IMG/VR virus record: IMGVR_UViG_3300035698_007029
Coordinates: 1-21,276 of that record
DNA length: 21,276 nucleotides
Source: a virus
Strand: one strand, 5' to 3'
A program made the position numbers and the translations under genes. Position 1 is the first letter of the stretch. The number at the start of each line of letters is the position of its first letter. The notes under the pieces were generated by a model. It searched no databases. It saw only the letters and a list, made by a program, of their open reading frames with translations, and was not told where the DNA came from. Positions 1 to 2,665 of this stretch are shown piece by piece.

Positions 1-71
1 CCAAAATCTTTCAATGCTTGGATACGACATAGTCCATTTTCTTCTCGTTTCAATAACTTATATTTTTTCAT
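1..71 (-). CDS. Partial start of a second hexapeptide-repeat (YdcK-like) protein
   Basis: Only the first 23 codons and 2 nt lie in the window; the gene continues past the left edge. It starts at ATG 71 (minus), 8 nt after a perfect GGAGG (80-84), and begins MKKYKLLKREENGLCRIQAL. These 71 nt are identical, base for base, to positions 542-612 of the neighbouring gene, so this is a tandem paralogue of the 100-639 gene or a gene-converted copy of its start. It is the last gene in view of the minus-strand block, 28 nt after the preceding stop. Whether it also carries the beta-helix repeats cannot be seen. Unlike its neighbour, its ribosome binding site sits directly before MKKYK, without the MKITILEEK extension. 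Confidence 0.7.
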   Translation of the reverse strand, partial: MKKYKLLKREENGLCRIQALKDF

Positions 72-99
72 CTTCTGTGCCTCCTTTTTTTGTCTCATT

Positions 100-639
100 T
101 TAGTAATCTACGTCACCGCCACACACTCGAGCATTACCAAACACCTGAGCATTGCCAAATACTTGAGCATTGTCACACACTCGAGCATCACCAAACACCT
201 GAGCATTGCCAAATACTCGAGCCTTGTCACACACTCGAGCATCACCAAACACCTGAGCATTGCCAAATACTTGAGCATTGTCACACACTCGAGCATCACC
301 AGATACTTGAGCATTATCAGATATGTGAGCAGTACCAAACACTCGAGCCTTGCCACACACTCGAGCATCACCAAACACCTGAGCATTGCCAAATACTTGA
401 GCATTGTCACACACTTGAGCAGTACCAAACACTTGAGCATTGTCAAATACTTGAGCATTATCACACACCCAACATTCACCGAAGTGGCTAAGGTTATCCT
501 CTTTTTCTGCATAGCCGCCAATGTCCCCTTTTTTCACATCTCCAAAATCTTTCAATGCTTGGATACGACATAGTCCATTTTCTTCTCGTTTCAATAACTT
601 ATATTTTTTCATTTTTTCTTCTAAAATTGTGATTTTCAT
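100..639 (-). CDS. Hexapeptide-repeat left-handed beta-helix protein, YdcK-like
   Basis: The protein has 179 residues. Residues about 11-55 form a non-repeat cap (KYKLLKR, DFGDVKKGDIGGYAEKEDNL) that resembles the N-terminus of the E. coli YdcK family as I remember it. From about residue 56 to 173 it is twenty hexapeptides of the type NAQVFG/DARVCG. Each has Val at the inward position and Ala four residues later, the pattern of left-handed beta-helices. Cysteines fall at 59, 77, 95, 119, 137, 155 and 173, spaced 18 residues (one helix turn) except one gap of 24. The start chosen is ATG 639, 8 nt after GGAGG (648-652); ATG 612 (residue 10) is an alternative because the paralogue at 1-71 starts there. 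No acetyltransferase catalytic residue is recognisable. The role is unknown; a structural or surface scaffold is a guess. The gene lies 19 nt after the 659-1399 gene in a co-oriented block. Confidence 0.85.
   Translation of the reverse strand: MKITILEEKMKKYKLLKREENGLCRIQALKDFGDVKKGDIGGYAEKEDNLSHFGECWVCDNAQVFDNAQVFGTAQVCDNAQVFGNAQVFGDARVCGKARVFGTAHISDNAQVSGDARVCDNAQVFGNAQVFGDARVCDKARVFGNAQVFGDARVCDNAQVFGNAQVFGNARVCGGDVDY
114..476. repeat. 18-nt tandem repeats (54-nt higher-order unit) inside the beta-helix gene
   Basis: The coding strand repeats every 18 nt (one hexapeptide) with a superimposed 54-nt unit (three hexapeptides, one beta-helix turn). Nearly identical 54-nt units can be read around 172-225, 226-279 and 352-405, differing by a few bases. 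This suggests recent expansion by slippage or unequal recombination. The repeat is in frame throughout, which explains the long but spurious open frames on both strands. Confidence 0.9.
542..612. repeat. 71-nt perfect direct repeat of positions 1-71
   Basis: Positions 542-612 match 1-71 exactly. The match covers codons 1-23 from the MKKYK methionine and continues to the window edge, so the true repeat may be longer. It stops abruptly at the ATG, where the upstream leaders differ. Confidence 0.95.
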
Positions 640-640
640 T
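606..640. repeat. 35-nt repeat, copy A (leader encoding M-K-I-T-I-L-E-E-K-M-K)
   Basis: Positions 606-640 match 1366-1400 with a single base difference. On the minus strand the block encodes MKITILEEKMK at the start of the 100-639 gene and MRITILEEKMK at the start of the 659-1399 gene, whose remaining sequences are unrelated. A start cassette has therefore been copied between different genes. Confidence 0.9.
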
Positions 641-658
641 TTTTGTGCCTCCTTTTTG

Positions 659-2635: not shown

Positions 2636-2665
2636 TTTTCTGTGCCTCCTTTTTTTGTGTTTCTT

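What the first reader, a model, noticed from the sequence alone, without database searches (positions are those of the whole stretch)
100..639. Beta-helix protein with a cysteine on nearly every 18-residue turn and one phase slip
Cysteines sit at residues 59, 77, 95, 119, 137, 155 and 173, in the same hexapeptide position. The spacing is exactly 18 residues, one turn of a left-handed beta-helix, except for a 24-residue step. Residue 113, where the first series would continue, is Ser, and one extra hexapeptide then shifts the ladder by one face. Phe occupies the equivalent position on the other two faces. A cysteine ladder along one face could bind metals, form stacked disulfides or present a repetitive surface. 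I know of no described phage protein with this pattern, but I could not search.
Basis: partly seen in the sequence, partly recalled or inferred. Interest (0 to 1): 0.62.

Follow-up and report, generated by a model that had tools for sequence, protein, structure and literature searches.

The report
YdcK-like phage beta-helix with duplicated cysteines
This is an ordinary phage member of a widespread family of rod-shaped repeat proteins, and its regularly spaced cysteines most likely come from copying of a 54-base DNA unit rather than from a metal-binding or disulfide ladder.

Summary
Gene 100-639(-) encodes 179 aa with Cys at 59, 77, 95, 119, 137, 155 and 173 at one hexapeptide position, with one 24-residue step. 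The beta-helix reading is supported. The protein passes Pfam's YdcK beta-solenoid cut-off, matches YdcK by sequence (PDB 2f9c/2pig, E=2e-21) and has many phage and prophage relatives. A 51-sequence AlphaFold2 model (pLDDT 97) has YdcK as its four best PDB matches, and most of the next matches are other left-handed beta-helix proteins. The special meaning given to the cysteines is not supported. In 50 relatives the six testable ladder columns are mostly Tyr, Phe or Ser, with Cys in 0-7. Across 167 non-redundant relatives, aromatics at this site stack every 18 residues (z=7) but cysteines do not (z=-0.4). In this gene the 18-nt hexapeptide codons, silent bases included, are identical only at spacings set by a 54-bp unit and the slip, so the period reflects tandem DNA duplication. 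The Cys lie in two stacks on two faces. The function is unknown. The best inference is an intracellular, early-region rod with a conserved N-terminal cap.

The parts
100..639 (-). YdcK-like beta-solenoid protein, 179 aa
   Evidence: PF18836 70.8 bits against cut-off 30; phrog_7964 E=5e-69 and phrog_5070 E=3e-66; PDB 2f9c/2pig E=2e-21
640..656 (-). Shine-Dalgarno region (AAAAAGGAGGCACAAAAA) before the ATG at 639
   Evidence: sequence printed
469..612 (-). Conserved N-terminal cap, residues 10-57 (MKKYKLL...ALKDFGDVKKGDIGGY...NLS..ECW)
   Evidence: invariant residues A28 D31 F32 V35 G38 G41 G42 L50 W57 in 51 relatives
118..469 (-). Hexapeptide/54-bp tandem array coding for about 6.5 coils of the solenoid; carries the seven Cys
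   Evidence: Tandem Repeats Finder: period 18 (19 copies) and 54 (6.5 copies); codon table
286..360 (-). Phase-slip block, four hexads (VCGKAR VFGTAH ISDNAQ VSGDAR) between Cys95 and Cys119
1..74 (-). Start of a second, tandem copy of the gene, cut by the contig end
   Evidence: 71 of 71 nt identical from ATGAAAAAATA onward, but without the MKITILEEK leader

Best explanation
The gene encodes a YdcK-like left-handed beta-helix. A conserved cap of about 50 residues closes the N-terminal end, and a rod of about 6.5 three-sided turns follows, built from the hexapeptide V-(F/Y/S/C)-(G/D)-N-A-x. Val and Ala point inward and residue i+1 points outward (inferred from the known geometry of the fold). 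At i+1 the family uses mainly Tyr, Phe, Ser and Cys, which share the codon box TNY and interconvert by one base change. The Cys period arose when a 54-bp unit carrying one TGT codon was copied in tandem, so Cys recurs every 18 residues with no need for selection on Cys. Most likely the protein is an intracellular early-region accessory protein that works as a rigid rod or protein-binding surface whose length changes by repeat gain and loss. Shown: fold class, family, DNA duplication, non-conservation of Cys. Inferred: cytoplasmic location, binding role (the binding role alone I would put at about 0.3).
For: Family. Fold: AF2 pLDDT 97.0 and pTM 0.91 with 51 sequences; the four best PDB matches are YdcK, E 1e-7 to 9e-7, and most of the following ones are other left-handed beta-helix proteins such as GlmU, LpxD, PglD and gamma carbonic anhydrase. 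Independent of AF2: in 167 relatives, Phe/Tyr at i+1 pairs at a lag of 3 hexads (844 against 754 expected, z=7.0) and Asn at i+3 likewise (z=4.5), with no enrichment at lags 1, 2 or 4, after near-duplicate hexads were removed. Codon box: 77% TNY over 4521 hexads. Duplication: identical 18-nt hexads in the window gene occur only at lags 3, 6 and 7, and Val GTA/GTG and Gly GGC/GGT choice follows the 54-bp phase. Cys not conserved at the ladder columns. Context in other phages and prophages: next to replication, recombination and regulator genes.
Against: The window gene has the highest fraction of Cys at i+1 of all members surveyed (6/19; none of 167 others reach it), and all seven ladder codons are still TGT, so some retention by selection cannot be excluded. 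[quoted passage not shown] The binding role has no direct evidence.
Confidence: 0.82

Rival explanations
1. The Cys stacks are functional: metal sites, stacked disulfides or a redox-active face on a beta-helix.
For: Exact 18-residue spacing (P=0.0034 for the placement, post hoc). Highest Cys fraction in the surveyed family.
Against: Relatives have mostly Tyr/Phe/Ser at these columns, Cys in 0-7 of 50. Cys shows no 18-residue stacking preference in the family (z=-0.4). Silent-site identity follows the same phase. L013 and L016 carry very similar VCDNAQ/VFGNAR units at other spacings, placing Cys on several faces. The stacks switch face at the slip. In-line thiols about 4.8 A apart do not form a tetrahedral metal site (inference from fold geometry), and the N terminus shows no sign of export.
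Confidence: 0.04
2. It is a hexapeptide acyltransferase of the LpxA superfamily, as some phage annotations say.
For: The same fold class; weak matches to LpxA/LpxD models and structural matches to LpxD/GlmU. Some phage records say 'acyltransferase'.
Against: All NCBIfam transferase matches are far below cut-off. The conserved residues lie in the N-terminal cap; the solenoid conserves only its core ladder and has no conserved His.
Confidence: 0.05
3. It is a bactofilin-like polymer that forms filaments in the infected cell.
For: Bactofilin Pfam model matches weakly, 22 bits against a cut-off of 27.9. Some phage relatives are annotated 'polymer-forming cytoskeletal protein'.
Against: Below the curated cut-off. 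The conserved N-terminal cap is expected to block end-to-end stacking on that side (inference).
Confidence: 0.08

Closest known systems
YdcK (Salmonella, PDB 2f9c/2pig; Pfam PF18836 B_solenoid_ydck)
   Same: N-terminal DF.DVK.G..GG....LS..G.CW cap including the conserved Cys (Cys56 here), followed by hexapeptide solenoid.
   Different: YdcK is 326-334 aa with irregular, interrupted coils; this protein is 179 aa with a nearly perfect tandem array. The NCBIfam YdcK equivalog cut-off is not reached (88.8 of 350 bits).
PHROG 7964 / 5070 phage proteins (for example in Streptococcus phage Sfi19, Xanthomonas phage CP1, Vibrio phage 1.209.O)
   Same: Nearly full-length match including the cap and hexapeptide rod (PHROG profiles; phage records matched by tblastn). 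That the three named phages fall in these two PHROGs was not tested one by one.
   Different: i+1 residues in the family are mostly Tyr/Phe/Ser instead of the Cys-Phe-Phe repeat; sequence identity about 39-63%.
Insect left-handed beta-helical antifreeze proteins (spruce budworm)
   Same: A repeated outward residue on one face of a left-handed beta-helix (own knowledge, not tested here).
   Different: There the ladder is Thr on a flat ice-binding face; here it is Cys/Phe and breaks across two faces. No sequence relation was looked for.

Membership tests
YdcK-like beta-solenoid (PF18836) | Pfam gathering score of 30 bits | tested here: met
   70.8 bits
YdcK-like beta-solenoid (PF18836) | N-terminal cap motif DFGDVKxGDxGG...NLSxxGxCW | tested here: met
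   present at residues 31-57; invariant core shared with 50 relatives and aligned with YdcK
YdcK-like beta-solenoid (PF18836) | left-handed beta-helix with three hexads per turn | tested here: met
   AF2 model matches YdcK crystal structures best; lag-3 stacking statistic. Handedness was not measured from coordinates.
YdcK equivalog (NCBIfam NF040481) | curated cut-off of 350 bits | tested here: not met
   88.8 bits; so a relative, not shown to be an ortholog of YdcK
LpxA-type hexapeptide acyltransferase | conserved catalytic His in the solenoid and cut-off of a transferase model | tested here: not met
   invariant and nearly invariant columns contain no His; the only frequent His, residue 52, is in the cap; all transferase models far below cut-off
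Bactofilin (PF04519) | Pfam gathering score of 27.9 bits | tested here: not met
   22 bits
Metal- or disulfide-bearing cysteine ladder | ladder Cys conserved in relatives | tested here: not met
   Cys in 0-7 of 50 relatives at the six columns that could be tested; residue 173 lies beyond most of the aligned fragments
Metal- or disulfide-bearing cysteine ladder | metal content or disulfides in the protein | not testable with these tools
   needs purified protein

The most novel reading that the evidence does not exclude
The Cys/Phe version of the outward ladder was amplified because it gives the rod a new property in this phage, such as stacked thiols that bind soft metals or lock copies into disulfide-linked fibres; DNA duplication would then be the means and selection the cause.
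Probability: 0.04. Interest if true: 0.5.

Novelty: new member of a known kind. Interest (0 to 1): 0.17.

Why it matters
The protein belongs to a very common but functionally uncharacterised phage and prophage family. The survey gives that family a structural rule that can be tested: aromatics at the outward i+1 site, and Asn at the turn, stack every 18 residues. It also shows how near-identical tandem arrays can look like designed residue ladders.

Tried and rejected
Exact 26-nt scan for the same unit in IMG/VR: none found, so no near-identical relatives to compare array length. Search for the window's capsid protein in eight contigs holding relatives: none, although most of them are fragments. 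First AF2 model with 8 sequences: weak, matched YdcK poorly; replaced by the 51-sequence model. Literature on YdcK or phage hexapeptide solenoids in the open library: no function found. Neighbour clustering: early-region genes, mostly from Bartonella prophages; no constant partner seen. Antisense ORFs over the array were dismissed because the minus-strand gene has the ribosome-binding site and the homology.

Full report
Observation. The minus-strand gene 639..100 encodes 179 aa. The listed Cys positions are all correct, all at position i+1 of V-x-(G/D)-x-A-x hexapeptides; residue 113 is Ser, and residue 107 is Ser as well. Cys24 and Cys56 lie outside the ladder. Given 7 Cys on 20 hexads, at least five 18-residue pairs arise by chance with probability 0.0034, computed post hoc. 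A good ribosome-binding site, AGGAGG, precedes the ATG at 639. A second ATG at residue 10 begins the part shared with relatives (MKKY...), and the tandem copy at the contig edge starts there directly, so the first nine residues (MKITILEEK) are an addition also found, with one change, at the start of the neighbouring gene 659-1399.

Family. Pfam B_solenoid_ydck scores 70.8 bits against a cut-off of 30. PHROGs 7964 and 5070, both of unknown function, match nearly the whole protein. The only PDB sequence match is Salmonella YdcK. tblastn finds 68 phage records, hosts including Streptococcus, Bacillus, Vibrio, Xanthomonas, Edwardsiella and Bacteroides. Scans of IMG/VR and GTDB each confirmed more than 120 relatives, 80 and 79 loci kept, many of them in Bartonella (the link to prophages rests on the neighbouring genes). 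The YdcK equivalog cut-off is not met, so this is a YdcK-like protein and not shown to be YdcK itself.

Fold. With a 51-sequence alignment AlphaFold2 gives pLDDT 97.0 and pTM 0.91, with a two-residue strand every six residues. The four best PDB matches are the YdcK chains (E 1e-7 to 9e-7), and most of the next ones are other left-handed beta-helix proteins. Global TM-scores are modest (0.33-0.48 for YdcK), probably because the rods differ in length and in their interruptions (inference). AF2 is known to overcall beta-solenoids for near-perfect repeats (PMC11795689), so an independent test was made from sequence alone. In 167 non-redundant relatives, with the window gene left out and near-duplicate hexads removed, Phe/Tyr at i+1 recur at a lag of three hexads (844 pairs against 754 expected, z=7.0) and Asn at i+3 does the same (z=4.5). 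Lags 1, 2 and 4 show no enrichment. This supports an 18-residue turn in the family without any structure prediction.

The cysteines. Position i+1 in 4521 hexads is Tyr 40%, Phe 18%, Ser 17%, Cys 7%; 77% of the codons are TNY. TAT, TTT, TCT and TGT are single-base neighbours, so Cys is one of four easily exchanged residues at an outward site. In 50 aligned relatives the six testable ladder columns hold mainly Tyr, Phe and Ser, with Cys in 0 to 7; residue 173 lies beyond most of the aligned fragments. Cys56, part of the cap, is conserved in 43 of 50 and in YdcK. Unlike the aromatics, Cys has no 18-residue preference in the family (11 pairs against 12 expected, z=-0.4). Without the duplicate filter, and with redundant sequences counted, Cys pairs at lag 3 do look enriched (43 against 25.5); this falls to 19 against 15.8 (z=1.0) when redundancy and the window are removed.

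Cause of the period. The array is a 54-bp tandem repeat. Hexads identical at all 18 nt occur only at lags 3, 6 and 7; 7 is what 54-bp copies give when they straddle the one-hexad slip. Silent choices follow the phase: outside the older slip block the Val codon is GTG in Cys hexads, GTA in the next hexad and GTG in the third, and Gly is GGC in the second hexad and GGT in the third. Copying of a unit that already carried TGT is therefore sufficient. The window gene is nevertheless the most Cys-rich at i+1 of the set, which leaves a small opening for selection.

Geometry. Because of the extra hexad the cysteines form two stacks on different faces: 59/77/95, then 119/137/155/173. From established left-handed beta-helix geometry (own knowledge), equivalent residues are about 4.8 A apart along the axis. 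That is a poor layout for tetrahedral metal binding and neither requires nor strictly forbids disulfides.

Context and function. In this window the gene sits in a minus-strand block of small genes opposite the terminase-portal-capsid block on the plus strand. In other phages relatives lie near primase, helicase, RecA, RNA polymerase or exonuclease genes, although in Acidovorax phage AP1 and Vibrio phage 1.209.O the neighbours are mostly hypothetical. In prophage-like loci, mainly Bartonella, the recurring neighbours look like an annealing protein, a YqaJ-type exonuclease, an antirepressor and repressors, judged by eye from their sequences. About half of the surveyed loci hold more than one family member (82 of 167). 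The most probable role is an intracellular early accessory rod that binds something through its surface or cap; this remains inference. No catalytic His is conserved in the rod and no transferase cut-off is met.

Verdict. The cysteine-ladder interpretation is not supported, and the period is best explained by DNA duplication in a common phage protein family.

Noticed in passing
window 1-74 (-): A second tandem copy of the YdcK-like gene begins here, identical over 71 of 71 nt, and the contig breaks off inside it, as assemblers often do at repeats.
   Followed up: partly
window ~74-95, 640-656, 1400-1420, 1540-1560, 1840-1860, 2160-2215, 2640-2660 (-): The small minus-strand genes share near-identical leaders (A-rich stretch, GGAGGCACAGAAAA or similar, ATG). 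Two unrelated genes share the N-terminal peptide M(K/R)ITILEEKMK, and two others share MKKLKKYGKKKEAKKMN.
   Followed up: partly
L175 3508-3821 (Vibrio phage 1.209.O, MG592579): CRISPR spacers are annotated inside and overlapping the start of the YdcK-like gene, some at 54-base intervals; they look like a miscall of the hexapeptide DNA repeat as a CRISPR array.
   Followed up: no
phage hits H4, H9, H19, H40, H48: Streptococcus Javan prophage relatives are annotated 'glycerol kinase', which looks like propagated misannotation.
   Followed up: no
family survey, 167 non-redundant members: Aromatics at the outward i+1 site and Asn at i+3 recur every 18 residues, and Lys/Arg at i+5 tend to avoid that spacing (z=-2.6): a sequence signature of coil stacking.
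   Followed up: yes
L095-L173: Many Bartonella genomes carry several divergent family members each, beside early-region phage genes.
   Followed up: partly
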